Positions 3,948 through 33,184 of a stretch of DNA of 64,000 nucleotides are shown here, in pieces (the stretch's first letter is position 1; every line of letters starts with the position of its first letter). The notes under the pieces were generated by a model. It was not told the origin of the DNA. It worked only from the letters and a program-made list of their open reading frames with translations, and ran no database searches. Both the position numbers and the translations under genes were made by a program. Source of the stretch: Nocardia ninae NBRC 108245 (GTDB lineage: Bacteria > Actinomycetota > Actinomycetes > Mycobacteriales > Mycobacteriaceae); NCBI RefSeq assembly GCF_007990755.1, contig NZ_BJXA01000017.1, positions 62,001 through 126,000 on the forward strand, given 5' to 3'.

Positions 3948-5312
3948 CTAGCCGGATCGGTCGGCGTAGTTCAGCAGGAACAGCGCCTCGGCTAGTGCCA
4001 TGTGCTCGATCTCGGACGGGTCCACGCTCTCGTTGGGCGCGTGGATCAGGCACTTCGGTTCCTCGACCCCGAGCAGCATGATCTCGGCCTCGGGGTAGGT
4101 GTCGGCGAAGACGTTACACAGCGGAATCGAGCCACCCTGCCCCTGCGTAGTGGCGGCGCGCCCGTACGAGGCGGCCAACGCCGCCTCCATCGCCTCGCGC
4201 GCCGGACCGCCGTTCCCGGACCGGAACGGGGCGCCGATGCCGTCCAGTTCGATGGTGAGTTCGGCGTTCCCCGGCGTGTTCGCCTCGAGGTGCGCGAACA
4301 GTGCCTTGCGCGCCTCTTCCGGGTCGGTGCCCGGTGGGATGCGCAGACTGAGCCGAGCACGCGCCGAGGGCTGGATGGCGGCGGTCGAACCGACCACCGG
4401 CGGGACATCGATCCCCAGCACCGTCAAAGCCGGTCGCGCCCACAGCATGTCGGAGACGGAGCCGTCACCGATCAGCTCCACGCCGCGCAGCACACCGGCG
4501 TCGGTGCGGAACTGGTCCTCCCCGTACTGCACGCCGGACCAGCGCTGATCGTTCTGCAGCCCGGCGACCGTGGTGTTGCCGTGCGCGTCGCGCAGCGAGG
4601 CGAGCAGGTGGATCAGCGCGGCGAGCGCGTCCGGGGCGGCACCGCCGAACATGCCGGAATGCAAAGGGCCCGCCATGGTTCGGACGGTGACGATCACGCT
4701 CACGCCGCCGCGCAAGGTTTCGGTCAGCGTCGGCACGCCTGCCGCGAAGTTGCCACAGTCGCCGATCAGAATCGTGTCGGCGCGCAACAGATCCGGGTTG
4801 GCCTCGACGAACCGCTCCAGCCCGCCGGTGCCCTGCTCCTCGGAGCCCTCGGCGACCATCATGACGCCGAGCGGCAGGTCGGGTCCCAGCGCACGCAGCG
4901 CGGTGAGGTGCATGACGATGTTGCCCTTGCAGTCGGCGGCGCCGCGGCCGTACCAGCGGCCGTTCTTCTCGGTCAGCTCCCAGACCGGCGTGCGCCAGGC
5001 GGCGGGGTCCAGCGGCGGTTGGACGTCGTAGTGGCAGTACAGCAGCACCGTCGGCGCGCCGGGCGGCCCGGGGCGGGCGGCGATGACGGCCTTGCTGCCG
5101 TCCGGTGTCTCGTGCAACCCCACCCTGGTCAGCCCCGCCGCGGCGAACGCGTCGGCCACCCACTGCGCGGCGCGCTCACACTCCTCCGGCGGGAACTGGC
5201 GCGGATCCGCCACCGACTTGAACGAAACAAGTTGCGTCAGATCGGTTTTCGCCTGCGGCATGAGCGCGGCCACCTTGCTGCGCAGCTCGGCGGTGCGGGA
5301 ATCGTCGGTCAT
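3948..5312 (-). CDS. M20-family dipeptidase / zinc peptidase
   Basis: 454 residues with all M20 metal ligands visible: His94 and Asp96 in YCHYDVQPP, Asp127 in GRGAADCKGN, the catalytic/ligand pair Glu158-Glu159 in EGSEEQG, and a C-terminal HAPNES. A dimerisation (lid) domain lies between about residues 200 and 330. The length and the HYDVQPP motif fit the carnosinase/dipeptidase-like subgroup, which hydrolyses dipeptides or N-acyl amino acids in the cytosol. The start is the ATG at 5310-5312, giving MTDDSRTAEL. Exact substrate is not readable. Confidence 0.9.
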   Translation of the reverse strand: MTDDSRTAELRSKVAALMPQAKTDLTQLVSFKSVADPRQFPPEECERAAQWVADAFAAAGLTRVGLHETPDGSKAVIAARPGPPGAPTVLLYCHYDVQPPLDPAAWRTPVWELTEKNGRWYGRGAADCKGNIVMHLTALRALGPDLPLGVMMVAEGSEEQGTGGLERFVEANPDLLRADTILIGDCGNFAAGVPTLTETLRGGVSVIVTVRTMAGPLHSGMFGGAAPDALAALIHLLASLRDAHGNTTVAGLQNDQRWSGVQYGEDQFRTDAGVLRGVELIGDGSVSDMLWARPALTVLGIDVPPVVGSTAAIQPSARARLSLRIPPGTDPEEARKALFAHLEANTPGNAELTIELDGIGAPFRSGNGGPAREAMEAALAASYGRAATTQGQGGSIPLCNVFADTYPEAEIMLLGVEEPKCLIHAPNESVDPSEIEHMALAEALFLLNYADRSG

Positions 5313-5560
5313 GGCCAGCGCCTCACTTCTTCGTGTCGTCGCGCTCTTGTCGCGCACCCGGATACGGAAACGGTCCGGCAGCAGCGCCGCTTGCGCACTG
5401 TGACACGAACCGCTCAGCTCGAAGGTTGAAGGTAGTCGACCGAGCAGTCCGTGTCGTCCGACTTACCGGCACCGACAACCGGCCGCCGGGCCGGCCATGT
5501 GTGAGGGTGGTGAGTGACTGCAGTTCGGTACCAGCCCGCCGACACTCCGGAGGCCCTCCG

Positions 5561-6958
5561 ATGCCCTACCGCGCAGACTCCGACGACCTGTTCGCCCTAC
5601 CCGGCATGAGCCGCGTCGCCCCCAAGGCCGGCTTCCCGCAGCACGAGCTGTTCGCCGAGGTCGCCTACGAAATCGTGCACGACGAACTCATGCTCGACGG
5701 CGTCTCCCGGATGAACCTGGCGACCTTCTGCAGCACCTGGGTGGACGACCAGGCGCGCAGGCTGATGGCCGAGTCGCTGGACAAGAACATCGTCGACAAG
5801 GACGAATACCCGCAGACTGCGGAGCTCGAGCGCCGCTGCGTCCGGATGATCGCCGACCTGTGGCGCTGTCCCGACCCGGCCACCACGCACGGCACCTCCA
5901 CCACGGGGTCCAGCGAGGCCGCGATGCTCGGCGGGCTGGCGGCCAAGTTCCGCTGGCGGCAGCGCGGGGGCACCGGCACACCCAATTTCGTGTGCGGGCC
6001 GGTGCAGGTCTGCTGGGAGAAGTTCGCACGCTATTTCGACGTCGAGATCCGCCGCATTCCGCTGCGCGGGGACCGCCTGACCATGCATCCGGATGACGTG
6101 GCCGCCTATTGCGACGAGCGAACCATCATGGTGGTGCCGACCTTCGGGCAAACCTTCACCGGGCTGTTCGAGGACGTCGCCGGGATCAGCCGCGCACTGG
6201 ACCAGCTGCAAGAGGTGAGCGGACTGGACATCCCGATCCACGTGGACGCGGCCAGCGGCGGCTTCCTCGCCCCGTTCACCGCACCGGACCTCGTGTGGGA
6301 CTTCCGACTGCCGCGGGTGAAATCGATCAACGCCTCCGGTCACAAGACCGGGCTCGCGCCGCTCGGAGTCGGCTGGGCCATCTGGCGTGAAGCCGCCGAT
6401 CTGCCCGCCGAACTGATCTTCGACGTGGACTATCTCGGCGGCAGTGTCGGCACGTTCAATCTCAATTTCTCCCGGCCCGGCGGGCAGGCGATCGCGCAGT
6501 ACTACGAGTTCATCCGGCTCGGCCGGACCGGATACGCCCGCGTGCAGTCCGCCATCTACCGCGCCGCCCGGCACCTGGCCGCGGGTCTGCGCGACCTCGG
6601 GGTGTTCGAGATGATCCACGACGGCGATCCACACCGGGGCATCACCGCCGTGGCGTGGCGGTCCAGCGGTGATCCCGGGTTCAACCTGTACGACCTGTCG
6701 GATCGGTTACGCAGCAGGGGCTGGCTGATCGCCGCCTATCCGCTGCCCGCGGACCGGGAGCACGAGACGATCATGCGGGCGGTGATCCGGCACGGCTTCA
6801 CCGTCGACATGGCCGATCTGCTGGTCGCCGACTTCGACCGATGCCTGAAACAGCTGGCGCGGCATCCGTTTTCGACCTCGCTCACCAGGCAGGAAGCGGG
6901 AGGCTTCACGCACAGCGCGACGGCGGTGGTGCCCGACGAGCAGATCGAGCCTGCCTGA
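5561..6958 (+). CDS. gadB: glutamate decarboxylase (PLP-dependent)
   Basis: A 465-residue group II PLP decarboxylase. It has the N-terminal GadB-type LPGMSRVAPKAGF segment, the cofactor region STTGSSEAAMLGG, IHVDAASGGF (Asp binding the pyridine N), and the Schiff-base lysine at about residue 262 in SGHKTG. It converts glutamate to 4-aminobutyrate with consumption of a proton, supporting acid tolerance or GABA metabolism. The ATG at 5561 follows a GGAGG ribosome site; the frame is open further upstream but lacks conservation there. No GABA antiporter gene is adjacent. Confidence 0.92.
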   Translation: MPYRADSDDLFALPGMSRVAPKAGFPQHELFAEVAYEIVHDELMLDGVSRMNLATFCSTWVDDQARRLMAESLDKNIVDKDEYPQTAELERRCVRMIADLWRCPDPATTHGTSTTGSSEAAMLGGLAAKFRWRQRGGTGTPNFVCGPVQVCWEKFARYFDVEIRRIPLRGDRLTMHPDDVAAYCDERTIMVVPTFGQTFTGLFEDVAGISRALDQLQEVSGLDIPIHVDAASGGFLAPFTAPDLVWDFRLPRVKSINASGHKTGLAPLGVGWAIWREAADLPAELIFDVDYLGGSVGTFNLNFSRPGGQAIAQYYEFIRLGRTGYARVQSAIYRAARHLAAGLRDLGVFEMIHDGDPHRGITAVAWRSSGDPGFNLYDLSDRLRSRGWLIAAYPLPADREHETIMRAVIRHGFTVDMADLLVADFDRCLKQLARHPFSTSLTRQEAGGFTHSATAVVPDEQIEPA

Positions 6959-22686: not shown

Positions 22687-22706
22687 ACCCCGTTCCGCCC
22701 CAACAC

Positions 22707-22747
22707 AAAAGGGTGGTCGGACCGAGACCCGGTCCGACCACCCTTTT
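22707..22747. terminator. strong bidirectional terminator after the HIT gene
   Basis: A perfect 17-bp stem (22707-22723 with 22731-22747) with a 7-nt loop. It begins with AAAA and ends with TTTT, so it can terminate transcription from either strand. It marks the end of the conserved core before the island. Confidence 0.92.
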
Positions 22748-22770
22748 CGGATAAGCCTCTACAACGTAAC

Positions 22771-22795
22771 GAGCGCGCCCGATGTGGGCGCGCTC
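22771..22795. terminator. second GC-rich hairpin
   Basis: A perfect 10-bp stem (GAGCGCGCCC at 22771-22780 with 22786-22795) and a 5-nt loop, 24 nt after the main terminator and 6 nt before the tRNA-like fragment. No T-run. Confidence 0.5.
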
Positions 22796-22800
22796 GACCG

Positions 22801-22841
22801 GAGCCCCGGTCAGGAAGCACTGACAACCTCTCGCTTACAAG
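22801..22841 (-). other. degenerate tRNA-Thr 3' fragment, putative att site at the island's far end
   Basis: Compared with the tRNA-Thr gene at 33113-33184, this 41-bp stretch keeps in order GAGCCCC, GTCAGGA, CTGAC, ACCT and TCGCTTACAAG, with a few substitutions and two 1-nt gaps, in the same orientation. It covers the tRNA from the anticodon loop to just past its 3' end and no further. That is the piece left by integration of an element at a tRNA anticodon loop. The copy is diverged, so the event is old. Confidence 0.62.
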
Positions 22842-23248
22842 ATCAAACGCCTGAGCGCTGTGCTGACGCGATAGTTTCGCAGCACCAGCGCGTAAAGGCA
22901 AAGTTCAGTAGCAAGCAGCCTTCCCCCGCCGTCCACCGACCACGAAATCCGTGTCGCGAGACGTTGACTCAATTCGTGATAGAGCCCACCGTAGAACTCT
23001 GCGGTGGGATGGAACCGTTTCCCCCTGCTCCCCGTCCAACACTAGTGACGGACAAACACTTTCGGACTCAGTCTCGCAAGGGATCCAGATCCGACGCCGT
23101 CGCCGTCGCATCTAGCGAGACCCGCCGTCGGCAAGATAGCTGCGGAGGGCAAAAGCAAGGTAGTTCCAACCCGCGACAACATACGTTATCGGCGGTCAGC
23201 AACCCGAACGATGCGCCGCGCCCGGCCGGACCGGTCGCCGAGTTTGCC
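22842..23248. other. intergenic stretch of the island, no gene supported
   Basis: Open frames exist on both strands but none has a convincing start, ribosome site or recognisable motif. The base composition is less GC-skewed at third positions than in the flanking genes. Confidence 0.5.
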
Positions 23249-23714
23249 CTATCCGGTGCGGTTGGCGAAGGGCCGCTTGCCGTACATCGCCCCGAACTCC
23301 GCGATCATGGCCTTCTCCGTGACGCGCGGGTCGGCAGTGGGCCGCAGCCCACTAACAGCTCGGCGCTGTCGGCGAACTGCCAGATCATCCGTCCGCCCCA
23401 GTAGGCCACCCGTCGCCCGGCGCCGTGTCGGCGATACTCCTCAAGGCGTTTACGTCGCGTCTACCGGAGCGGCCGGCCGCGGCCTTGCCGATGTAGAGCA
23501 CCGGTTCACCCGGCACCCACGCCGCCTGGAGTTCGGCGACGGGCAGCGACGGGTCCTTGCCCTTGAACCACCCCGCCGGACTCGTGGGCAAGAACACCGG
23601 ATCAGCCACCGCCAGCCGGATCACCACGTACACCCCGGGCACGGACGGCACCTCGGTCACCGGTAACGCGGAGAATGCCACGAACCCGCCGAACCTCTCC
23701 AGCGCGAAGGTCAT
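23249..23714 (-). pseudogene. GIY-YIG-like protein, broken by two frameshifts
   Basis: From the ATG at 23714 the frame reads SVPGVYVVIRLAVADPVFLP ... PGEPVLYIGKAAAGRSGRR, a GIY-YIG-like fold opening. The frame is then lost. In a second frame it continues RKRLEEYRRHGAGRRVAYWG then RMIWQFADSAELLVG, and in a third PTADPRVTEKAMIAEFGAMY then GKRPFANRTG and stop at 23249. Joined, these give one continuous protein of about 155 residues with the family's late catalytic-type region. Two single-base frameshifts (near 23455 and 23345) therefore inactivate it. Confidence 0.7.
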
Positions 23715-24123
23715 ACCGGAATCATGCCCCTCGCCCGTCGGCGGGCGACTCGTGTTTCACGTCTTCGCCAGCGGGCGGAGTTCATTCGCGAGCTGATCGT
23801 CGACGCACCAACGAAGGGTCTGACCAGGCCGGGCTCAGTGCAGTTAGGAACTGCTACGGCGAGTGAGGATCGATGCGCGACGGCACACAGATCGGCCGCG
23901 AAGCGGCCGTCAGGGTCGGCGTGTCAGTTATTCGAACGATGTTGTGCGTCCGGTTTTTCCAATACCTTGGCGGTCTACCGCTCGGTCACGCAGACCAGCG
24001 GGAACTTGCCCGTAGATAGGCCGACCATGTTTCTGCGAAAAGCGCTCGGCGCGCTCCGGATGTTCTGTCAGTGTGGCTGTGCGCGGTGCGCCAGGTATGA
24101 CCACTGCTACAGCCGACGCTGTC
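23715..24123. other. intergenic stretch of the island with a small hairpin
   Basis: No supported gene. A perfect 7-bp stem with a 3-nt loop (CGGCCGC, 23893-23909) is present. Short open frames occur on both strands (for example 23928-24137 minus) without recognisable features. Confidence 0.4.
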
Positions 24124-24216
24124 TGCAGTAGCAGCACTCAGCTTGCCGCTGGCGAATGGCGACATCACCTAGCAAATCGGATGCTCGAATGGAACATCTC
24201 GGCTCAGCTTGGTTGA
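24124..24216 (+). pseudogene. relic of a paralogue of the helical protein gene at 27135
   Basis: Read in the frame of GAA at 24154, it encodes STQLAAGEWRHHLANRMLEW followed by NISAQLG and a stop. The gene at 27135 encodes DTRALASWALEWRDHLANRM followed by LEWSIRF. The DNA match is close over 24154-24195 against 27421-27462. Only the end of the first internal domain survives, so a fourth unit of this gene family once existed here. Confidence 0.65.
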
Positions 24217-24313
24217 TTCCGTCCTGTGTGGATCCCAGGATGACGCCGCTGAGGTCGATACTGGGGGATAGCCGTCTGATCTCTCTGCATTCCGTGCTCG
24301 TAGAAGCGGAGGC

Positions 24314-24370
24314 GAGCATCCGAGTCGCGGTCGGGAGGAGGTCCTCCTTCCGACCGCGACTCGGATGCTC
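24314..24370 (-). terminator. 57-nt near-perfect hairpin at the 3' end of an RHH gene
   Basis: Arms 24314-24341 and 24343-24370 pair over 28 positions with a single G-T wobble and one unpaired central base. The hairpin overlaps the stop codon of the RHH gene at 24369. It has no T-run, so it may act as terminator, mRNA 3' protection or a DNA-level palindrome. Confidence 0.7.
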
Positions 24371-24632
24371 ACGTATTCGTCCCCGCAAAGCCGTTACTCG
24401 TCAGAGGATTGACCGGGCCTCGCGCGCGCACAACCTGGGATGCCTCCATCAGGCGAGCACGTTCAATCGAGAGTCGCCTGTCGATCTCTGCGGGGTCGAG
24501 AAGTCGACGTATGCCCTCGGCGAGGATCTCGCGTGACTGCTCGGCGACGGACTGCTTCCTGCTAGCCGCGAGGGTGGACAGCAGCTGATGATCTTCTGGG
24601 CTGACGCGAACTGTGAAGGTCATTTTCGCCAT
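24369..24632 (-). CDS. ribbon-helix-helix protein, unit 1
   Basis: 87 residues. MTFTVRVSPEDHQLLSTLAA gives the beta-strand and first helix, SVAEQSREILAEGIRRLLD the second helix, as in Arc/CopG-type DNA-binding dimers. A charged helix (EIDRRLSIERARLMEASQ) and a variable tail follow. About 60 N-terminal residues are nearly identical to the proteins at 26462 and 27937; the tails differ. Divergent from the acidic protein gene at 24979 across 346 bp. Likely a local repressor or antitoxin-like partner. Confidence 0.75.
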   Translation of the reverse strand: MAKMTFTVRVSPEDHQLLSTLAASRKQSVAEQSREILAEGIRRLLDPAEIDRRLSIERARLMEASQVVRARGPVNPLTSNGFAGTNT

Positions 24633-24978
24633 CAGCTTTACCGCCTCGCTCGGGCACCGGTTGCTACGGGTGCTACGGGTGCTACCAGGGGTTCTGGTGG
24701 ATGCATCAGAGGATCGACTGCCATGCCTGCCTCCTTGGCTAAGGGGTTCACGCTCGGGTCGGTGCATACTATCGAATACGATCCGTCAGGATGACTTCAT
24801 TTGCATACGTAGGTTGATAGACGGGTACGGTGACTCACGGACGCACTCAGTGTGGGCGTAGTGTATCCGCCAGACCTGATGACAAGGAGTTCGCCACACG
24901 AGTAGCCCGGCTGCAAGCTCGAGAGCAAGCCAACCCGACAGGAGCTGCATCAGCAGAGCGAGGAGCGATGACCCCGCC
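24633..24978. promoter_or_regulatory. divergent promoter region of unit 1
   Basis: This 346-bp gap between divergent starts contains TGCTACGGG repeated twice exactly and once partly (24662-24688), and the octamer CGAATACG at 24773-24780 that recurs, exactly or with one change, upstream of the other island units. A GAGGAG ribosome site precedes the ATG at 24979. Operator function is inferred from position only. Confidence 0.4.
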
Positions 24979-25716
24979 ATGACCGAAAGCACAAGATCGG
25001 ACCCGGAAGGGCAGACCCCGGACCCGCATGACCCGCAGTACAAGGTCGAGGTCGATCAGATCGAGATCGGCGAGTCCGGCTTCTTCGAGTACAGAGTGAC
25101 GATCAAGACGGGACCAGATGCCCACGACGAGAAGCAGCCGTCAGGCGAGGATGGGCAGCCGTCGAGCGGTTCGGACTCGGACCTGCGGTTCTGGGTTGAA
25201 CTCCAGCGGATCCGGCGCGAGATTTCCAAAGTCTCGACCGAGCAGGTCACCAAGGTGTTTCTGCGGGAACTACACACAGCTTGCGCGGATGGCCGAATCG
25301 GCGAGAACGGCTTGCACGACTTGGCCGTGGAGTGGATGAACCACCTGGTCAGCAACTTCGTCCAGTATCGAATCACCCTCGTGCGCGATGTGGGCATCGG
25401 ACTCGACCAGAGGAAGAAGAAGTTGCCTGATCCGTTCGACTTCTTGATCGAGCTGCGAAAGAGCAGCGGTGACCTGTCGCTTTTCCCTCCGAAGTTTCTG
25501 GCGAAGGTCTTCTGCTGCGAGCTGTTCGAAGGATGCGATGTCGAGCAACTGCTCAACCAGCGCGAGGAACCGCTGCGTGCCCTGAACGCCGAATGGCTCG
25601 TCCACCTCGCTGATGAGCGGTTCGACGAGTTCCTGGCCGAGATCGAGGCGGCCTTCGAGATCCTGTTGTCCGACGAGGACGATCCGCAGGACGACGATCG
25701 AGCGCATGGAGCCTGA
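24979..25716 (+). CDS. acidic two-repeat helical protein of unknown function, unit 1
   Basis: 245 residues; I recognise no known family. A hydrophilic N-terminal 65 residues precede two related helical blocks of about 75 residues. Block 1 is LRFWVELQRIRREIS ... KVFLRELHTACADG ... LAVEWMNHLVSNF; block 2 is FDFLIELRKSSGDLS ... KVFCCELFEGCDVE ... LNAEWLVHLADERF. The C-terminus is very acidic (DEDDPQDDD). No membrane segment or signal peptide. It shares the two-block layout with the protein at 27135 and faces an RHH gene in the same way, so the pair is a unit. Confidence 0.7.
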   Translation: MTESTRSDPEGQTPDPHDPQYKVEVDQIEIGESGFFEYRVTIKTGPDAHDEKQPSGEDGQPSSGSDSDLRFWVELQRIRREISKVSTEQVTKVFLRELHTACADGRIGENGLHDLAVEWMNHLVSNFVQYRITLVRDVGIGLDQRKKKLPDPFDFLIELRKSSGDLSLFPPKFLAKVFCCELFEGCDVEQLLNQREEPLRALNAEWLVHLADERFDEFLAEIEAAFEILLSDEDDPQDDDRAHGA

Positions 25717-25776
25717 TCGGGAAGGTGCACGCAAGACCCGCGAGGTCGTGGGAGTTGCCCCCTGGACCGGCGCTCC

Positions 25777-25830
25777 CGCGCGATGACAAAGCGGCACAGT
25801 GGTAAAACTGTGCCGCTTTGTCGTCGCGCG
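25777..25830 (+). terminator. long hairpin after the unit 1 helical protein gene
   Basis: A 23-bp stem (25777-25799 with 25808-25830) with one G-T wobble and an 8-nt loop, 60 nt after the stop. It resembles the other long island hairpins in design. Confidence 0.75.
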
Positions 25831-25871
25831 GTCGGCCAGTCCTCAGGGCGTGCCGAAAGCTGAAATGCGGC

Positions 25872-25931
25872 GAGGCCGGCCAAGAGTTCGTTGAATGCTG
25901 GTTCGGGGAACCTGAACTTTTGGCCGGCCTC
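25872..25931 (-). terminator. long hairpin after the Pro/Trp-rich membrane gene
   Basis: An 18-bp stem (25872-25889 with 25914-25931; GAGGCCGGCC core) with one G-T wobble and a 24-nt loop lies 25 nt past the stop of the gene at 25956. Confidence 0.65.
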
Positions 25932-25955
25932 GGTCGCTTCGGCAGCAGTCGGCGG

Positions 25956-26300
25956 CTATTCGCGGTGTGCGTATCGGAGCCATGTCCACAGCGTCACCCC
26001 CACCAACTCTGGCAAGGCCAGGACGACGCCGACGGCGGCGTGGCCGAACACGATCAGAACTGCGGCCAGCAAGATCAACGCCAGGGCGACCAGACTGATC
26101 AGCAGTCTCAAAACTCCCCACCCCGGCGCTTCCGGTGATGGTGGCGGAGGAGGAGAAGGAGGCCACGAGGGCGGCCATCCACTAGGCCACGGTGGCGGCC
26201 ACGGACCCCACGGACCCCACGGTCCGGGGGTATCTGGTGCCGGCGTTGCAGCGGGATACCCCTGGTGGGGATCGCCTTGGGCTTGCGGGGGGAGTGACAT
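25956..26300 (-). CDS. Pro/Trp-rich small membrane protein
   Basis: 114 residues. The N-terminal 55 residues are an unstructured Pro/Trp/Gly-rich stretch with the repeats GPWGPWGPWPPP and WPSGWPPSWPPSPPPP. Two membrane segments follow (LLISLVALALILLAAVLIVF and GVVLALPELVGVTLW) and a short basic tail. No family recognised. The proline-rich arm could dock a partner at the membrane. It lies between RHH units 1 and 2, and the CGAATACG octamer (26381-26388) lies 81 bp upstream of its start. Confidence 0.65.
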   Translation of the reverse strand: MSLPPQAQGDPHQGYPAATPAPDTPGPWGPWGPWPPPWPSGWPPSWPPSPPPPPSPEAPGWGVLRLLISLVALALILLAAVLIVFGHAAVGVVLALPELVGVTLWTWLRYAHRE

Positions 26301-26427
26301 GCTGTCCGTCCTTCACGATCTATCCGATTGAATAAACGTGAGCCTACCTCGAGTTCGATTCGACTGCATCCGGTGTGATTCGAATACGTTGTAGTCGATC
26401 GTATGCACACGTTGTGAAGATCAAAAA

Positions 26428-26450
26428 GGGGCCGCCGGATCGGCGGCCCC
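26428..26450 (-). terminator. intrinsic terminator of RHH unit 2
   Basis: On the minus strand GGGGCCGCC pairs with GGCGGCCCC (9 bp, 5-nt loop) followed directly by TTTTT. It lies 12 nt after the stop of the RHH gene at 26462. Confidence 0.9.
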
Positions 26451-26461
26451 TCGGCGCTGAA

Positions 26462-26782
26462 TCAGGGCTTCGCGATGCGCCCATGGACTGCGCTCGAGGT
26501 GGAGTTGCCCACTTCCTCGGTCTGGTTCGCATCAGAGCTGGTGCGGCCCGGCGCGCTGGTTCCAAGTCTTTCCCCGCGGATCTGCTCGGCGGCGGCGAGG
26601 AGCCGCTCACGCTCGATGGCGAGCCGCTTGTCGATCTCGACCGGATCGAGAAGGCGGCGTATGCCGTCGGCCAAGATTTCTCTCGAGAGTTCCGCAACGC
26701 TCTGATTTCGGATCGCAGCCAAGCTCGTCAGCAGCTCATGATCTCGCGGATTGATCCGCACAGTGAACGTCATGTTGGCCAT
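26462..26782 (-). CDS. ribbon-helix-helix protein, unit 2
   Basis: 106 residues beginning MANMTFTVRINPRDHELLTS, then IRNQSVAELSREILADGIRR, the RHH fold. Residues 1-65 are almost the same as in the protein at 27937 and close to the one at 24369. The C-terminal 40 residues (Ser/Thr-rich) are unrelated to the other two tails. AGGAGA lies ahead of the ATG. Divergent from the helical protein gene at 27135. A conserved DNA-binding head with a specific tail is the layout of antitoxins and local repressors. Confidence 0.78.
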   Translation of the reverse strand: MANMTFTVRINPRDHELLTSLAAIRNQSVAELSREILADGIRRLLDPVEIDKRLAIERERLLAAAEQIRGERLGTSAPGRTSSDANQTEEVGNSTSSAVHGRIAKP

Positions 26783-27134
26783 TCAGCTCATCTCCTCTCG
26801 ACCCCCGAGTGTGGATGTACTCGAACCTCCCGCTGGTTTGCTCCGTAGACTTTCGCACATGCTTGACCACCTTTAATCCTGCCACCTTCGGTGCCGCGTG
26901 GGCGTGTCATCGAAGGCGCGCCCGCACTCACCGACGCATTTGATCGATTACGACAGAATCTAACCTAATACGAACGCGTACGAGCTGGTACCCGCATGCG
27001 TGTGATTCTTAGCGAAGGTGTCGAATACCACAGGGCACGATCGCACCGGTACGCACACATTGGTTTCACACAGGTAATGTATTCGGGACCCCTAGGGAAA
27101 CTTATGATCTTAAGCAAGAAAGAGCTCAGAGACG
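26783..27134. promoter_or_regulatory. divergent promoter region of unit 2
   Basis: A 352-bp gap between divergent starts, AT-richer than the core genome. It contains CGAATACC at 27022-27029, related to the octamer of the other units. Several ACGCGTACG/GGTAC-type short dyads occur around 26970-27055. Operator role inferred. Confidence 0.35.
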
Positions 27135-27806
27135 ATGACTCTCCCCGGAACAGGCCCCGATAGCTCGGACGAGTGTCCTGACAGCGAATCGGATCAGCCT
27201 GTCCAGTACGACGTGGAAGTCCACGTGGTCGCGGCCGATCGGGAACTGATCGAGAAGACGATACCCGATGCAGTCACGGTGGTTGCCGAGCTCCGGCGTC
27301 ACGACGCGGACCCGTTCACGCAGGAGCGACTGGCAGCGCTGGCGGCCCTGGAAGTCCTCAACTCGGATCTGAGCTGGTTCCGCGACGAAGACACTCGCGC
27401 ATTGGCATCCTGGGCTCTGGAATGGCGAGATCATCTAGCAAATCGGATGCTCGAGTGGAGCATCCGATTTGTCAGAGCGGACCCGGAGCCCAACCTGAGC
27501 GCCCCGCGAGACGCCGATACCAGCTCGCTCACTGCGGATACCGATTTGGATCTTCCTTGGCGGGGGCTGATCAACTTCTCTACACAGTTACAGCAATGGA
27601 ACGTGGGCCGCATCGGGTGGCAGAAGAAATTGACCGACCTGTTCTTGTGCGAACTCTTTGCGACCGCACGTCTGGATCAGTCCTCCTCGGAACGTGATGC
27701 CGCCATGCTGGAGTATCTGGCTGGCGAGGGCTTCGAACAGTTCAAAGCCGAGGTAGAGGCGGTATTCCGAGATTTACTGGCCGAGCCCGATGGCATGACC
27801 GCCTGA
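27135..27806 (+). CDS. acidic two-repeat helical protein of unknown function, unit 2
   Basis: 223 residues, no known family recognised. A hydrophilic N-terminus is followed by two helical blocks: AVTVVAELRRHDADPF ... LASWALEWRDHLANRMLEW and GLINFSTQLQQWN ... LTDLFLCELFATARLD ... LEYLAGEGFEQFKAEVEAVF. The second block aligns with the second block of the unit 1 protein (CELF, LA.E.F..F.AE.EA.F). No signal or membrane segment. The ribosome site is weak. It contains the inverted repeat CGGATGCTC...GAGCATCCG at about 27443-27466. Confidence 0.7.
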   Translation: MTLPGTGPDSSDECPDSESDQPVQYDVEVHVVAADRELIEKTIPDAVTVVAELRRHDADPFTQERLAALAALEVLNSDLSWFRDEDTRALASWALEWRDHLANRMLEWSIRFVRADPEPNLSAPRDADTSSLTADTDLDLPWRGLINFSTQLQQWNVGRIGWQKKLTDLFLCELFATARLDQSSSERDAAMLEYLAGEGFEQFKAEVEAVFRDLLAEPDGMTA

Positions 27807-27832
27807 CCCCCTCCTCCCAAGCCCGCCGATGC

Positions 27833-27858
27833 AGCCCTTGGCCGGAAGGCCGAGGGCT
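27833..27858 (+). terminator. hairpin after the unit 2 helical protein gene
   Basis: An 11-bp stem (27833-27843 with 27848-27858; AGCCCTTGGCC arm, one G-T wobble) with a GGAA tetraloop, 26 nt after the stop. Confidence 0.7.
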
Positions 27859-27936
27859 CTCATTACCGGGGAATATCGTAGATAAGAAGGCCAGGCGGCT
27901 GGCTCTTACGGTCGTACTACCAAAATAGGTTGATGC

Positions 27937-28290
27937 TCATTCGACTACCCGAGTGTGAAGCGGTGCCGGTTTGGGCGCCGCGTGGGCCGCGCGCGCAGGT
28001 GAAGCTTTCACGCTCTTCGGCGCGGGTGTGGCTTCCAGATCTGGAGCCTGGACAGGCCCAGCAGGCAGATCGGCTACCTCGGCCCTAATGCGCGCAGCCG
28101 CTTCCAGCAGTCGAGTTCGCTCCGCGTTGAGCCGCTTGTCGATCTCAACAGGGTCCAGAAGTTGCCGGATGCCGTGGGCCAGGATCTCTCGAGATAGCTC
28201 GGCGACACTCTGGTTCCGGATCGCGGCAAGGCTGGTCAGAAGTTCGTGGTCTTGGGGGCTGATGCGCACAGTGAAAGTCATGTTTGCCAT
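27937..28290 (-). CDS. ribbon-helix-helix protein, unit 3
   Basis: 117 residues beginning MANMTFTVRISPQDHELLTS, then AAIRNQSVAELSREILAHGI, the same RHH head as the proteins at 24369 and 26462. The tail is Ala/Pro/Lys-rich (KSVKASPARAAHAAPKPAP), basic and probably disordered. AAGGAG lies well placed before the ATG at 28288-28290. It is divergent from the gene at 28599. Confidence 0.78.
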   Translation of the reverse strand: MANMTFTVRISPQDHELLTSLAAIRNQSVAELSREILAHGIRQLLDPVEIDKRLNAERTRLLEAAARIRAEVADLPAGPVQAPDLEATPAPKSVKASPARAAHAAPKPAPLHTRVVE

Positions 28291-28598
28291 CTAGATCATC
28301 TCCTTGGTTCAGCGCCAGCGACGAGCTGGGAAGGTATCCAGGGCGATCCGGGCGGTTGTCTCAGTTGATGGGAAGTAACCACTTGCAGCCTGCCTTACGA
28401 ATTGTCGCACTCATCGGATTTCCAGGCGCCTGCCAGGCGCCGCGAACCTCAGCGATAGATTACGTTTGACTCCAGCGTACTACGCACGGCCGCACACGAC
28501 TAGAGTGTGTTCATGTGCGGCCATGCGAGTGCATGTGAATACGGGCGGCGTACCGTAATCAGTGCATCGCATCGCTTCGTAGTCAAGGAGGTCCGGCG
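28291..28598. promoter_or_regulatory. divergent promoter region of unit 3 with a 9-bp inverted repeat
   Basis: The 308-bp gap contains a perfect inverted repeat, GGCCGCACA at 28488-28496 with TGTGCGGCC at 28514-28522, a plausible operator. GATTACG (28458) and CGTAATC (28554) form a wider pair. GAATACGG at 28538-28545 is a variant of the island octamer. An AAGGAGG ribosome site precedes the plus-strand ATG. Confidence 0.5.
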
Positions 28599-29147
28599 AT
28601 GGCCGATACCCCGCACAGCCACAGCGGAGATACCTGTGTCTGCAGCCAGCCCGCGGAACGGAGACCCACCCGGCAAGAAGTCCTGGCCCTACTACACAAG
28701 GCGCTCGAATCGCCCATCGATGATCTGCACGCCAACCAGCTGCGTGTCGCCATAGGCAGACTGATGCTGGACTCTTACCGCCTTCTGCACACGTGCGAGC
28801 TCAGTGTTGAGCCAGCTCAGGCCGGTGAGACAGAGGTCGACGACCGTAAATCGAAAATCCTGTTCGGCAGTGACCATGAGAGCGTGCGAGAGTTCTACCT
28901 CAGATTGCGGTCGCTCTTTCGCTGCGTCGGCGGACTGGCTTCTCCACAGTGGGCCGACTTGTACCTGACGTCGATGATCGTGCGGTTCGACGTCAGTAGC
29001 TCCGCCGCCGAAGCGGACACTTCGATGGCGCTGCATCGCGCCGAGGTGCTGCACAGTATGGGCACCACCGAATTCCGCTACGTCCGCCAGGCGCTGGTAA
29101 ATATGTTCGAGGCGCTGGTGTCTGCCGAGCAATCAGACGACGACTGA
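28599..29147 (+). CDS. acidic helical protein of unknown function, unit 3
   Basis: 182 residues, no family recognised. Like the partner proteins of units 1 and 2 it is acidic, soluble and apparently all-helical. It has an HSHSGDTCVCSQP N-terminus with two cysteines, a block around LALLHKALESPIDDLHANQL and a second block FYLRLRSLFRCVGGL ... FRYVRQALVNMFEALV. Sequence similarity to the other two is weak; the shared feature is mainly position opposite a near-identical RHH gene. It is convergent with the AbiEii gene. Confidence 0.65.
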   Translation: MADTPHSHSGDTCVCSQPAERRPTRQEVLALLHKALESPIDDLHANQLRVAIGRLMLDSYRLLHTCELSVEPAQAGETEVDDRKSKILFGSDHESVREFYLRLRSLFRCVGGLASPQWADLYLTSMIVRFDVSSSAAEADTSMALHRAEVLHSMGTTEFRYVRQALVNMFEALVSAEQSDDD

Positions 29148-29230
29148 TCAGGAACGCGATATCCGACCGGGCCGGACCTTCTCGGTGTGGGGAAACCTCG
29201 CATCCGCCACCACCGCTCGGACCCGGGGGC

Positions 29231-30148
29231 TCAATCAACGGCAGATCGCTCCCACCGACGCGTCGAGGGATTCCACCGGCCTTCGGTGACAGTGCCATCG
29301 AGCAGCGGGTTCAGGCACTCACCCACCGATTCCAGCGCGGCCGCGAGTTGGTGGAGCCCTCGAGGAAGAACAGTCTTCTGCGCGAGTCGGCGATAACCTT
29401 CCTCCCATCCGAGCCCCGGGGATTGGATCGTTGTCGGCAGCGTGATCCCCCTGCGCCGCCGTTGTCCTTCGATTGCTGCGCGCGTCTTGGCGGCATCGAG
29501 GGGAAAACGATGCGTGATCAACAGAAGGTCTACCAGGTCACGCCAGCGTGTGGACGCGGTGGCGCCGGTGGTGCCGTGCATTTCGTACATCGCCGCGACC
29601 TTGTCGGCGATCTGATCCGCGAGTGGGTAGACCGCGAACGCGGGAAGCTTAGCGACACCAGGGATCTCTACAATCGGCGGCGGTGCGATGTAGTCGACCT
29701 CGCCGACCAATTCGCGGTGGACGGCCAAGTCGATCGGGAACGGTCTGGCCAGCAACGTCGTCCCAAAGAAGGCGGTGGCGCTCAGCTCGACGCCACTGGT
29801 CATACCCCGAAGACGCTTGCGCACCTCGAGCTGAAACAGGAACGGGTCCAGCCGACTGTGAGCACAGAGCTGCTGCAACTCGGCGAGAGCCTGATCGAGG
29901 TCGGCCTCACGATGGACGAGATCGATGTCTTTACTATGACGCGCACCGGGGATACGAACCAGCAGTCCACCCCCACCTTTCACCATCCACGGCGCATCCG
30001 GTTCGGCGAACACCCGAGCGAGGAAGCGCTGCATGAAAAACTCTCGTTGCAGCTCTGACGGTAAGCGGTTGGTAGCGTCTGCTTGGTTCCTAATCCTTTG
30101 GCTGAGAGCGGTTTTGAACGCCACGCCCGTCTTGTAGGTGAATGTCAC
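29231..30148 (-). CDS. AbiEii-type nucleotidyltransferase (type IV toxin)
   Basis: 305 residues. The nucleotidyltransferase motif is visible as MVKGGGGLLVRIPGARHSKD followed by IDL, giving the G-G...D-x-D catalytic pattern. IADKVAAMYEMHG carries the conserved Lys, and RWRDLVDLLLI the late R.RD.vDl motif of AbiEii/AbiGii proteins. In characterised AbiE/MenT systems such enzymes add nucleotides to tRNA and stop growth. The start is GTG 30146-30148 (VTFTYKTG). It follows the AbiEi-like gene on the same strand with a 167-nt gap, wider than the usual overlap. The Ser/Thr that normally follows the GG is Gly here. Confidence 0.83.
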   Translation of the reverse strand: MTFTYKTGVAFKTALSQRIRNQADATNRLPSELQREFFMQRFLARVFAEPDAPWMVKGGGGLLVRIPGARHSKDIDLVHREADLDQALAELQQLCAHSRLDPFLFQLEVRKRLRGMTSGVELSATAFFGTTLLARPFPIDLAVHRELVGEVDYIAPPPIVEIPGVAKLPAFAVYPLADQIADKVAAMYEMHGTTGATASTRWRDLVDLLLITHRFPLDAAKTRAAIEGQRRRRGITLPTTIQSPGLGWEEGYRRLAQKTVLPRGLHQLAAALESVGECLNPLLDGTVTEGRWNPSTRRWERSAVD

Positions 30149-30315
30149 TGACCCTCGCCACGTCGTCCTCACCGAATACTCATCGGCTGCTCGACAGTGT
30201 GCTCCGCCGCTGCCGGGTCTTGTCACGAAATGCCCGGACTCCATCGACATTCGGACGGTTACTCCGGGCTCGTTGCCCAAAGAGAGACGAGTGGGGTCTT
30301 CGCCAGCCCGCTTCC

Positions 30316-32127
30316 CTAGTCCTCTCCGGCGGGCAGCGCCGGGGTGCGCCGAGATCGGCTCGCTATTGCAGCACTCCGGAACCAGTATTCGGCTTCGTCC
30401 TGGTTGCCGTGCTGTTGGAGAAGCATCGCCAATTCGACCATCGCGCTGGTATAGCCGGCATCGGCGGCACGCTGGTACCACTGTTTGGCCCCGCTGAGGT
30501 CGCCACGCCGCGCGAACAGTTTCGCGAGGTCGATCATCGCCCCGGCATATCCGGTGTCGGCGGCACGCCGATACCACGCTTCGGCCTCCAGAAAGTCACG
30601 CTTCTCGACCAGAAGGGCGGCGAGATCGATCATCGCGCGCGTGTGGCCGGCGTCGGCGGCACGGCGATACCACTTCTCGGCTTCGGCCACCTCGCCGCGC
30701 TCGATCAGAAGGGCGGCGAGGTCGATCATCGCACTCGTATGGCCGACTTCGGCGGCACGCCGATACCAATGCAGTGCCTCTTCCACGCCGCGACCTCCTG
30801 CGAGGAGAGCGGCGAGATCGATCATCGCACTCGTGTAGCCGAGGTCAGCGGCGCGCCGATACCACAGTTCGGCTTCTTCGATTACGCCTTGTAACACGAG
30901 ACGATGCGCGAGCTTGTACATCGCAACGGGATAGCCCGTACCACCGGCGCGCCGGTACCACAGTTCGGCTTCCTCGTACCAGCCGCGTTGTGTGAGCAGA
31001 TCCGCCAGACTGCTCATCGCGATGGGATAGCCCGTACTGGCGGCACGGCGATACAGTCTCTCGGCCTCCACAAGATCGTCGCGTTCGGTGAGCAGATCCG
31101 CCAGGTTGCTCATCGCCTTGAGATCCCCCTCATCCGCGGCGCGCCGGTACCACTTCTCGGCCTCCAGAAGATCGCCGCGTTCGGTGAGCAGATTCGCCAG
31201 ATTGTTCATCGCGCTACTGGAACCAGCTTTGGCGGCGTGGCGGTACCACGCTTCGGCGTCGGCAAGTTCACCGTTCTCTTTGAGAAGCGCCGCGAGTTTG
31301 CTCATCGCCTGAAGATCGCCCCCAGCCGCAGCCCTGCGATACGACTCCTCGGCCTGGTCAAGCGATGGATACGCGAGGACGTCGCGGAGGTCGGTATCGA
31401 CCGGAAATTTGGTGTCAGACGAGGACACTCTCGAAACCATGTGACGAGTTTTTCGGGGTTCCCCGAAGGTGAGCTCGATGACGCCGCCCTGCTCGATCAA
31501 GCTGCTGACAAGCTCGCTTCCCGCACCGAGAGGGAGACCGTAGAAATGCGCATACGGGCGCAGGGCAGCGCCGATCTCATCGGCCGTGGTGTCTCCGCTG
31601 TGGATGACATCACGGACCACCCCCGCCAGGTGCCCGCCATCGGTACGAGCCGCGGCAAGGTCTACTACCGTTCGCAACGGCCGAGTGACCGGGAGGCCAG
31701 ACACCAGCCGCCAATCACTGCGCGCAAGAGTAGCAACATGAAACACCACCTCCGAGCTGCGGGAGCTGCGCCGTTCCTTAACGGTGAACTCGTAAACGTC
31801 CGCATCGAGGTCACCGAAATTCTGAAGACTGGCAGCACAGCGATGCGAGACGACACCGGCGGGTGGATCATCGGCCAGACGGTCACTGGCCAGACGAGCC
31901 GGTTCCAGTGCGAGCCATTCCGCCTGCAACGCCTCCTCAGGGCTACCCGGAAGACCAGCCAAACGGTAGACCCCGTGCCGGACCCGCACGATCAACGCCC
32001 GATCCGCCAGACGCTTCACCTGCTGGGGAGAGATCTCGGCCATCTCCTTGGCCTGGGCAGTGGTGAAAAGACCCCACTGCGACTCCGCCACATCGGCCAG
32101 CTCTAACAGTCGATCATCACTTGCCAT
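30316..32127 (-). CDS. AbiEi-like antitoxin domain fused to ten Sel1/TPR-like repeats
   Basis: 603 residues. Residues 1-58 form the AbiEi winged helix (GLFTTAQAKEMAEISPQQVK ... VRHGVYRL). Residues 60-225 match the antitoxin body (VVSHRCAASL, LPVTRPLRTVVDLA). From about 259 to 578 there are ten 32-residue repeats of the form AE.WYRRAAD.GYTSAMIDLA ALL.ERG, plus a half repeat, i.e. a Sel1/TPR-like solenoid. Ordinary AbiEi antitoxins end after about 200-290 residues. AbiEi proteins repress their own promoter; two nested inverted repeats upstream fit this. The solenoid may add a protein- or phage-sensing surface. This is inference. Confidence 0.82.
   Translation of the reverse strand: MASDDRLLELADVAESQWGLFTTAQAKEMAEISPQQVKRLADRALIVRVRHGVYRLAGLPGSPEEALQAEWLALEPARLASDRLADDPPAGVVSHRCAASLQNFGDLDADVYEFTVKERRSSRSSEVVFHVATLARSDWRLVSGLPVTRPLRTVVDLAAARTDGGHLAGVVRDVIHSGDTTADEIGAALRPYAHFYGLPLGAGSELVSSLIEQGGVIELTFGEPRKTRHMVSRVSSSDTKFPVDTDLRDVLAYPSLDQAEESYRRAAAGGDLQAMSKLAALLKENGELADAEAWYRHAAKAGSSSAMNNLANLLTERGDLLEAEKWYRRAADEGDLKAMSNLADLLTERDDLVEAERLYRRAASTGYPIAMSSLADLLTQRGWYEEAELWYRRAGGTGYPVAMYKLAHRLVLQGVIEEAELWYRRAADLGYTSAMIDLAALLAGGRGVEEALHWYRRAAEVGHTSAMIDLAALLIERGEVAEAEKWYRRAADAGHTRAMIDLAALLVEKRDFLEAEAWYRRAADTGYAGAMIDLAKLFARRGDLSGAKQWYQRAADAGYTSAMVELAMLLQQHGNQDEAEYWFRSAAIASRSRRTPALPAGED
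30394..31353 (-). repeat. ten tandem 96-bp coding repeats
   Basis: The Sel1/TPR-like part of the AbiEi fusion is encoded by ten in-frame units of 96 bp without spacers. Units 6-10 are the most alike (core GY/HTSAMIDLAALL), suggesting recent expansion at the 3' side. The uniform 32-residue period, rather than 36, is notable. Confidence 0.85.
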
Positions 32128-32133
32128 GCAACG

Positions 32134-32199
32134 AAAATATCACCCGCGCAGTAAAATTACCCCCCTAGCGGGTAATTTTCAGATACTGGCTGATATTTT
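32134..32199. promoter_or_regulatory. nested inverted repeats, probable AbiEi operator
   Basis: Inner repeat: AAAATTACCC (32153-32162) with GGGTAATTTT (32170-32179). Outer repeat: AAAATATCA (32134-32142) with TGATATTTT (32191-32199). Both are perfect and centred on nearly the same point, just upstream of the AbiEi start at 32127. Characterised AbiEi antitoxins bind paired inverted repeats in this position. The AT-rich arms stand out from the genome background. Confidence 0.7.
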
Positions 32200-32866
32200 T
32201 GAAATACGATGTGAACTTTCGCCGATTGAGTGGGAGGAATCGCATCTCTACCTACGCGGATGCGTCCTGCAGCGACGCATGCCTGTCATCAGTGATGCAG
32301 GCTGGCGGACGGGAGCGTGCAGCGTGCGGGCTTTGACCAGAGTGCGTCCGGAACCGCAGCGGTGTCCAGGCCCGAGTCAGCGATTTCGGTGGCGATCCGC
32401 CGCTTCTACGCATCCAGACCACCCCGGAGGCGTTAGCGTTCCTGACCAGGACATCCACTAGGTACCTCGCCTTCTGCCGTACCGCCTCCTGCGACACGCT
32501 GCCGTTGGGTGACACGATCGCGAACTTCCTGCCCAACGATGAGTGACCAGTTCACGCGACCTGGTTCACCAACCGCGCTGGTCCGTTACAGACCCTCGAT
32601 CGTGATCTCCAAAGTCCGCAACGCTACCGGTAGGTGGAGCTGGACTTGGGCGGTGCCCGGTTGCCGCTGCCGGCTCGTCGGTCAGCACCGAGTATCCGGT
32701 ATCTGAGCTTCCCACACACGACATGCACAACGTCGCGCATGTCGCCCTTACTGGGAGAGACAAACTGTTCTAGCGGAGAAGTCAAGTGCCTCTGCGATTG
32801 ATCTACGTTGCGCACGGCCGCCGCTTGCGCTGCTGCGGTTCGAAACTCCGGAGAGAGCCACCTGTT
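32200..32866. other. decayed region between AbiEi and the integrase relic
   Basis: No intact gene. On the minus strand around 32640-32680 the frame reads GNRAPPKSSSTYR, similar to the region before the catalytic domain core in actinobacterial tyrosine integrases, followed by a stop. Other frames are broken. It may be the remains of the integrase C-terminal half. Confidence 0.35.
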
Positions 32867-32996
32867 TCACAAACCCGGCGGCCCGCTCCGGGCGTTGAAG
32901 GTGTTGTTGACGGTCTTCGGGGATATACCTTCGGCGTTGAGGTCGAGCTTGAACGACCGAATTTCGGGCTCTAACGGGTCCGCGTCGAAGTGGCGG
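32867..32996 (-). pseudogene. tyrosine integrase relic (N-terminal core-binding domain)
   Basis: The minus-strand frame reads DADPLEPEIRSFKLDLNAEG then ISPKTVNNTFNA before an early stop at 32867. This is the pattern of the SAM-like core-binding domain of phage-type tyrosine recombinases (E..SF...L...G.SPKTV..Y). Upstream, in another frame, ARPRKPPL resembles integrase N-termini, implying a frameshift. It lies 117 bp from the tRNA-Thr gene, where the integrase gene of a tRNA-integrated element normally sits. Confidence 0.5.
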
Positions 32997-33112
32997 TTTT
33001 CGTGGCCGGGCGACGGTCATACCCACCACGGCAACAGGTTTAGTGCTGTTCGAGCAGTGCGCTCCGCCCAAAAACAACCGTGACCTGCCGCATCGGCAGG
33101 TCACGGACTATG

Positions 33113-33184
33113 AGCCCCCTGTCAGGATTGAACTGACGACCTTTCGCTTACAAGGCGAGTGCTCTACCACTGAGCTAAGGAGGC
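33113..33184 (-). tRNA. tRNA-Thr (anticodon TGT)
   Basis: The minus strand folds as a tRNA: acceptor GCCTCCT pairs with AGGGGGC, D arm AGCTCAGTGGTAGAGC, anticodon loop CTTGTAA (TGT, reading ACA Thr), T arm GTCAG-TTCAATC-CTGAC, discriminator T; CCA is not encoded. The 27-43 pair at the top of the anticodon stem is C-A. The gene is intact and is the likely integration target of the island lying downstream of its 3' end. Confidence 0.93.

What the first reader, a model, noticed from the sequence alone, without database searches (positions are those of the whole stretch)
30148..32199. AbiE-type toxin-antitoxin pair with the antitoxin fused to a ten-repeat Sel1/TPR-like solenoid
Seen: winged helix plus AbiEi body in residues 1-225, then ten exact-length 32-residue repeats, followed by an AbiEii nucleotidyltransferase gene, and two perfect nested inverted repeats just before the antitoxin start. 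Known: AbiEi proteins are usually short and repress their own promoter through paired inverted repeats; AbiEii enzymes block growth by modifying tRNA. Inferred: the solenoid is an added sensor or scaffold, for example one that binds a phage protein or releases the toxin. The 167-nt gap between the genes, instead of an overlap, also suggests separate control of the toxin.
Basis: partly seen in the sequence, partly recalled or inferred. Interest (0 to 1): 0.85.

Follow-up and report, generated by a model that had tools for sequence, protein, structure and literature searches.

The report
Toxin-control protein with built-in repeat arm
A Nocardia bacterium carries a known kind of growth-stopping toxin and antitoxin gene pair, but here the antitoxin ends in a long repeat-built binding arm of a kind also seen on other suspected bacterial immune proteins, and the ends of related antitoxins turn out to be fast-changing and often repeat-rich, which suggests that this end may be where such systems sense something.

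Summary
On the minus strand, window 30316-32127 encodes one 603-aa AbiEi-family antitoxin: a conserved core (residues 1-218), then ten units of exactly 32 residues (Sel1/TPR-like). A complete AbiEii nucleotidyltransferase toxin follows at 29231-30148, 167 nt away. The promoter inverted repeats are real; the outer pair has the same sequence and position in two Nocardia relatives. The pair lies in a 10.4-kb lower-GC island beside tRNA-Thr, empty in five of nine relatives compared. No other AbiEi frame examined has this solenoid; related arrays sit on caspase-domain, P-loop-like and Ser/Thr-kinase proteins. New here: in actinobacterial AbiEi the C-terminal tail is the fastest-varying part and is prone to tandem repeats (17 of 53 tails, 0 of 53 cores, 0 of 46 toxins). 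The solenoid looks like the extreme case of that rule. The best reading is a variable sensor that controls when the antitoxin lets the presumably tRNA-modifying toxin act. AbiE membership by sequence is solid; the sensor role is inferred and untested. The gap argument for separate toxin control is weak. All rests on one draft assembly, and structure prediction could not be run.

The parts
30316..32127 (-). abiEi-solenoid antitoxin gene, 603 aa: wHTH (10-57), AbiEi body to about residue 218, linker 219-258, ten 32-aa Sel1/TPR-like units 259-578, start of an eleventh unit, short end
30394..31353 (-). DNA of the ten 96-nt repeat units (residues 259-578)
   Evidence: repeat register; coordinates worked out from residues 259-578 of the ORF
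29231..30148 (-). abiEii nucleotidyltransferase toxin, 305 aa, GTG start, GAGGG ribosome-binding-like motif at 30152-30156 (read by eye); R70, D74, D76, D140, K183, R201, D204, D207 as in homologues
30149..30315 (-). 167-nt spacer between antitoxin stop and toxin start; no recognisable remnant of an AbiEi tail
32134..32199 (.). Outer operator inverted repeat: arms 32134-32145 and 32188-32199; TGATATTTT (coding strand) ends 6 nt before the ATG; same sequence and spacing in L108 and L109
32153..32179 (.). Inner operator inverted repeat AAAATTACCC-7 nt-GGGTAATTTT; not seen at this place in L108 or L109
22690..33111 (.). Genomic island (GC about 0.61-0.63 from 24 to 34 kb, against 0.64-0.70 elsewhere in the window) between a HIT-family gene (ends 22686) and tRNA-Thr; carries the AbiE-solenoid pair
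33112..33184 (-). tRNA-Thr(TGT) at the island's right edge; degenerate copy of part of it at about 22804-22841 near the left edge

Best explanation
It is an AbiE-family (type IV) toxin-antitoxin operon whose antitoxin carries a ten-repeat Sel1/TPR-like solenoid in the place of its normally variable C-terminal tail. Inferred mechanism: the AbiEi core represses the operon through the promoter repeats and counteracts the AbiEii nucleotidyltransferase. The solenoid is the specificity part: it binds a protein of an invading phage or mobile element, or a cell component that changes on infection, and binding disables the antitoxic or repressor function, so that AbiEii modifies tRNA and halts growth. 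Shown by sequence: the pair, the intact conserved toxin residues, the operator shared with relatives, the solenoid in one frame, the island, and fast-varying, repeat-prone tails in relatives. Inferred: operator binding, tRNA as target, ligand binding, release of the toxin, and defence as purpose.
For: Domains and conserved toxin residues; a profile of 36 toxins matches solved MenT3/Rv1045 at E about 1e-15. Operator arms identical in sequence and position in the window, L108 and L109; L110 has one mismatch and a 1-nt shift. Tails vary most: over 60 AbiEi pairs with core identity of at least 0.60, mean identity is core 0.69, toxin 0.58, tail 0.37; tail below core in 59 of 60 and below toxin in 57 of 60, pairs not independent. 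Internal repeats in 17 of 53 tails (0 of 200 shuffles reach them), 0 of 53 cores, 0 of 46 toxins by the same rule; DNA tandem arrays in 8 of 78 tails, none in cores or toxins, all periods multiples of 3. Related solenoids in Nocardia and Streptomyces follow caspase, P-loop-like and Ser/Thr-kinase domains. Precedents in print: TPR as C-terminal sensors of antiviral STAND proteins (PMC10907252, passages), and CapRel, whose variable antitoxin domain senses phage proteins and whose toxin modifies tRNA 3' ends (PMC11578894, passages).
Against: No ligand, phage or phenotype data. The fusion was seen in one draft genome only, so conservation of the full architecture cannot be shown. TPR/Sel1 arrays bind many things, so the scaffold reading is also compatible. 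In Streptococcus the AbiEi C-terminal domain suffices for neutralisation and the system is described as non-interacting (PMC3985639, passages), so how a tail would gate antitoxicity is unclear. 36 of 53 tails show no significant repeats, some AbiEi have no tail beyond the core (L138, L148), and related tails are counted apart in the 17 (L136 and L144 are 97% identical in the core).
Confidence: 0.5

Rival explanations
1. The solenoid is a scaffold or neutralisation aid: it makes the antitoxin oligomerise on the operator, or holds AbiEii directly, so that a non-contact type IV antitoxin becomes a contact one.
For: TPR/Sel1 arrays are general protein-binding solenoids (established knowledge); C-terminal contacts of AbiEi have been proposed to help cooperative operator binding (PMC7319586, passages); in an Actinophytocola MAG antitoxin and toxin are one open frame (L133), so close physical linkage may be tolerated.
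Against: The toxin has the consensus residue in all 31 highly conserved columns, as in relatives without a solenoid. Tails vary more than toxins between relatives, which argues against the tail being mainly a toxin-fitting surface.
Confidence: 0.25
2. The solenoid is a passenger: tail length and sequence in AbiEi are little constrained, repeats come and go by slippage and recombination, and the array was captured without a selected role.
For: AbiEi lengths run from about 215 to 461 aa among 78 relatives, two fusions left out, and some repeats are 85-98% alike at the DNA level. The fusion is a singleton in all searches.
Against: All ten units keep exact 32-residue register and eight invariant residues without stop or frameshift; repeat periods in relatives keep the frame; an extra 345 codons would be costly.
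Confidence: 0.2
3. Assembly chimera: the antitoxin core and the repeat array belong to two genes joined wrongly in a 204-contig draft.
For: Only one assembly carries it, and repeat arrays are prone to misassembly; no second strain was found.
Against: Continuous frame through a unique linker; operator upstream and toxin downstream in the expected order; similar GC3 in core (0.68), array (0.72) and toxin (0.70) against mostly above 0.8 (range 0.69-0.93) in gene-like frames outside the island (crude gene picking).
Confidence: 0.05

Closest known systems
AbiE type IV toxin-antitoxin (S. agalactiae AbiEi/AbiEii)
   Same: wHTH AbiEi followed by a nucleotidyltransferase AbiEii; inverted repeats before the antitoxin start
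   Different: 603 aa with a ten-repeat solenoid; 167-nt gap instead of the 4-nt overlap described for S. agalactiae (PMC3985639, passage)
Mycobacterial MenAT3/MenAT4 (Rv1044-Rv1045, Rv2827c-Rv2826c)
   Same: Toxin profile matches MenT3 structures; promoter with more than one inverted-repeat pair, as for Rv2827c (PMC7319586, passages)
   Different: No solenoid is mentioned in the passages read; no Rv2827c structure came up in the PDB searches with the window core
CapRel (fused toxin-antitoxin with a variable sensing antitoxin domain)
   Same: Logic: a fast-varying C-terminal antitoxin part coupled to a toxin that acts on tRNA (PMC11578894, passages)
   Different: Here the toxin is a separate gene of another family, tRNA as target is inferred, and no sensing is shown
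STAND and other conflict proteins with C-terminal TPR parts (PMC7159879; PMC10907252)
   Same: C-terminal TPR-type solenoid after an N-terminal functional domain (passages)
   Different: No NTPase domain here; the N-terminal part is an antitoxin/repressor

Membership tests
AbiE type IV toxin-antitoxin | AbiEi antitoxin with wHTH and AbiEi body | tested here: met
   Pfam AbiEi_4 46.7 bits (cut-off 25); PADLOC AbiEi E 2.8e-82
AbiE type IV toxin-antitoxin | AbiEii/DUF1814 nucleotidyltransferase with conserved residues, encoded directly downstream | tested here: met
   Pfam AbiEii 69.7 bits (cut-off 22.5); 31 of 31 conserved columns intact
AbiE type IV toxin-antitoxin | Inverted-repeat operator before the antitoxin gene | tested here: met
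   By sequence only: repeats present, outer pair at the same spacing in 2 relatives, weaker or differently placed in most of 15 Nocardia loci
AbiE type IV toxin-antitoxin | AbiEi binds that operator and represses the operon | not testable with these tools
   Needs EMSA and reporter assays
AbiE type IV toxin-antitoxin | Toxin is bacteriostatic, antitoxin neutralises without contact, phage protection | not testable with these tools
   Needs bench assays
Sel1/TPR solenoid proteins | Tandem helical repeats above curated cut-offs | tested here: met
   TPR_10 97.6 bits (cut-off 27.5), Sel1 49.4 (cut-off 30.7); solved Sel1/TPR structures match by sequence
NTP-dependent (STAND-type) conflict systems | NTPase switch domain coupled to effector and repeat sensor | tested here: not met
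   No NTPase match in antitoxin or toxin
CapRel-type fused toxin-antitoxin | Toxin and sensing antitoxin in one polypeptide | tested here: not met
   Separate genes, 167 nt apart

The most novel reading that the evidence does not exclude
The C-terminal tail of actinobacterial AbiEi antitoxins is a general, rapidly diversifying sensor region, so that AbiE systems are pattern-recognition immune systems in which tandem-repeat growth and capture of ready-made solenoids (as in this window) change what triggers the tRNA-modifying toxin.
Probability: 0.3. Interest if true: 0.82.

Novelty: new variant of a known kind. Interest (0 to 1): 0.6.

Why it matters
AbiE is very common (called the fourth most abundant phage-defence system in PMC11375011, passage), yet what triggers it is open as far as I know, and for the AbiEi homologue MenA4 the mode of neutralisation is stated there as not identified. 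A variant with a recognisable solenoid as its tail, and the finding that tails are the fast-varying, repeat-prone part, give a concrete place to look for the trigger and a direct test: swap or delete tails and ask whether phage specificity changes.

Tried and rejected
Other AbiEi-solenoid fusions: searched in genus, order, class, family and phylum samples, 80 GTDB loci (the best 80 of 251 relatives found), plasmids, phages and viral contigs. The listed frames of 500 aa or more were fetched and read, except the two hits of G1100, which has the same arrangement as G1034: 24 loci (8, 16), none with a TPR hit at E 1e-3. By eye they were upstream extensions of ordinary AbiEi frames, nuclease-like tails, tandem AbiEi copies, or (L194) an enzyme-like continuation after a withheld stretch. 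Searches list only their best places, so weaker AbiEi-like proteins were not read.

Remnant of an AbiEi tail in the 167-nt gap or the linker: scores no better than shuffles. Promoter or terminator in the gap: none found. A first genome-contig scan with the single protein confirmed nothing. Single-protein PDB searches of core and toxin had no hit; profiles gave the toxin match and only weak hits for the core, S. agalactiae AbiEi (6y8q) at E 0.053 among them. Of paper searches I saw listings (passages only for PMC10584680, PMC7159879 and PMC11578894); no listing describes such a fusion or repeat-rich AbiEi tails. The library holds open-licence PMC papers only.
Full report
What is there. On the minus strand the window holds an antitoxin gene at 30316-32127 (603 aa) and a toxin gene at 29231-30148 (305 aa from a GTG with GAGGG just upstream). 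Pfam gives AbiEi_4 at residues 10-57 and many TPR/Sel1 matches for the first, and AbiEii for the second. PADLOC gives AbiEi over residues 1-267 (E 2.8e-82) and AbiEii over nearly the whole toxin (E 2.1e-94). The array is ten units of exactly 32 residues (259-578), 96 nt apart, with eight residues invariant in all ten (A1, Y5, A8, G12, A16, M17, L20, A21) and 41-69% identity between units.

Toxin. In 55 aligned homologues, 31 columns are at least 90% conserved and the window toxin has the consensus residue in all 31, among them R70, D74, D76, D140, K183, R201, D204 and D207. A profile of 36 toxins matches solved MenT3 (Rv1045) structures at E about 1e-15 and AbiGII at 1.5e-8. Activity on tRNA is inferred from MenT relatives (PMC11375011, passages).

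Operator. The inner repeat is a perfect 10-bp inverted repeat with a 7-nt loop; 8 of 2000 dinucleotide shuffles have one as long. The outer arms AAAAATATCA and TGATATTTT lie 48 nt apart and end 6 nt before the ATG. They have the same sequence and spacing upstream of AbiEi in L108 (N. lijiangensis) and L109 (N. xishanensis); L110 has one mismatch and a 1-nt shift; L114 has both arms (one mismatch) but closer together. Of 15 Nocardia loci tested, 5 (L108, L109, L110, L114, L115) had no mononucleotide shuffle of 300 as good, 9 had 2 to 14 of 300, and L111 had 76 of 300, that is, no better than chance. The fusion has therefore kept the promoter repeats of its nearest relatives. Autoregulation through such repeats is known for AbiEi and Rv2827c (PMC3985639, PMC7319586, passages).

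Setting. GC is 0.61-0.63 from 24 to 34 kb against 0.64-0.70 in the other 2-kb steps of the window. OtsA and PurD, which flank the region, were found in 12 of 12 Nocardia genomes searched; the interval was fetched from 9 of the 12. In these, window 22690-33111 appears as an insertion between a HIT-family gene and the 3' end of tRNA-Thr. In five of the nine (L209, L210, L211, L212, L214) that interval is under 1 kb; in L213, L215 and L216 it is about 2.5, 7.7 and 4.4 kb without a match to the window's island; in L217 the tRNA edge was not matched. A degenerate copy of part of the tRNA (21 of 23 bases in its best stretch, E 2e-4 in a small search) lies near the other edge. No integrase was recognised in the seven island proteins scanned with Pfam. 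The genus is Nocardia: contigs of genus-mates have the same lengths as named Nocardia records.

How rare is the fusion. Genus: 150 genomes, 38 with an AbiEi match, 45 places. Apart from the window's, listed frames reach at most 463 aa, save one listed at 601 with a stop inside that reads as 287 aa. Of 33 AbiEi loci kept, only the window's has a TPR hit. Order sample: 44 of 397 genomes with a match; class sample: 34 of 394. With a 21-sequence profile: 281 of 401 family genomes and 100 of 396 phylum genomes match, listings capped. Samples overlap and include the window's genome. 24 loci with listed frames of 500 aa or more were read: no TPR hit. 80 named GTDB loci, the best 80 of 251: 0 of 80 have a TPR hit by tblastn. 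Plasmids: 94 records match the AbiEi part; with the full protein, 0 of 394 matching records cover 80% of it. No confirmed AbiEi-part match in phages or viral contigs.

Where else the solenoid occurs. Arrays about 31-57% identical to this one over the matched stretches are common in Nocardia and its order, and plasmid hits to the array part listed are 38-48% identical. N-terminal partners found: a caspase domain (Pfam Peptidase_C14) in L003 (own genome), L063, L080 and L081; a P-loop-like region in L077 (AAA_16 match below the curated cut-off), with similar N-termini read by eye in L068, L069 and L072; a Ser/Thr kinase in the Streptomyces plasmid protein L208; others have repeats only. Consensus-like repeats score high with each other, so no specific donor can be named.

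A general rule for AbiEi tails. Aligning relatives showed that homology stops at about residue 218 and that tails differ in length and sequence. Over 60 pairs with core identity of at least 0.60 and all three parts measurable, mean identity is core 0.69, toxin 0.58, tail 0.37; the tail is below the core in 59 and below the toxin in 57 of 60 (pairs share members, so these are not independent). An internal-repeat test with 200 shuffles each found repeats that no shuffle reached in 17 of 53 tails, 0 of 53 cores and 0 of 46 toxins; by z above 4 the counts are 17, 1 and 1 (a first run with 40 shuffles gave 18 of 53 tails). Some of the 17 are close relatives of each other (L136/L144, L147/L149). Tandem Repeats Finder found 9 arrays in 8 of 78 tails (19.9 kb), none in cores (50.3 kb) or toxins (56.7 kb), all with periods that are multiples of three and 85-98% matches; the rest of the fetched DNA had 0.08 arrays per kb against 0.45 in tails. 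In Rhodococcus the 15-residue tail repeat of L124 (six copies of its core) recurs nearly identical with three copies in L221, whose antitoxin gene is incomplete, and diverged in L218-L220. So the window's solenoid stands in a place that, across actinobacterial AbiE systems, is the fast-varying and often repeat-building part. I saw no account of this in the listings of the open-licence paper searches.

Reading. The core and operator look like an ordinary AbiE; the tail varies like a recognition surface. CapRel is a precedent for a variable antitoxin part that senses phage proteins and frees a tRNA-modifying toxin (PMC11578894, passages); TPR repeats are named as C-terminal sensors of antiviral STAND proteins (PMC10907252, passages) and as superstructure-forming parts of conflict systems (PMC7159879, passages; 'AbiE' does not occur in its main text). 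I therefore prefer a sensor role at about 0.5, a scaffold at 0.25, a passenger at 0.2 and an assembly chimera at 0.05. Results against: a single draft genome, no structure model, no ligand, and many AbiEi with short or repeat-free tails that presumably work without such a sensor.

The gap. 167 nt is unusual but not unique: of 69 measurable relatives (one of them the L133 fusion), 28 overlap by exactly 4 nt, 47 lie within 20 nt either way and 5 are at least 100 nt apart; values depend on the start codon chosen. It does not by itself show separate control.

Noticed in passing
L133 (Actinophytocola MAG) 5001-6400: AbiEi and AbiEii appear as one open frame: a fused antitoxin-toxin polypeptide (Pfam AbiEi_4 and AbiEii both above cut-off).
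   Followed up: partly
L181 (Streptomyces tailanensis) from 5001: AbiEi core continues in frame into a LacI-family DNA-binding domain, with no toxin hit in the locus.
   Followed up: partly
window 24369-28290 (-) and 24979-25716, 27135-27806, 28599-29147 (+): Three related small genes (about 24369-24767, 26462-26782, 27937-28290; two of them scanned, ribbon-helix-helix-like matches below cut-off) alternate with proteins of unknown family; 24979-25716 and 27135-27806 are 26% identical, and 27135-27806 has no match in the other 98 genomes.
   Followed up: partly
L003 676-2001 (own genome, G000:C28): Caspase-domain protein with the same type of repeat array in the window's own genome; other Nocardia have such proteins too.
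   Followed up: partly
L188 (G1034:C8): Two AbiEi-like domains in tandem in one 787-aa frame followed by a Cys/His-rich region (by eye); G1100 listed the same arrangement.
   Followed up: no
L104 and L106 (Nocardia): Toxin matches beside open AbiEi frames are split over two frames: decayed toxins with retained antitoxins, or sequencing errors.
   Followed up: no
L213, L215, L216 between HIT gene and tRNA-Thr: The same site is about 2.5-7.7 kb long in these Nocardia, without a match to the window's island: perhaps an integration hot spot.
   Followed up: no
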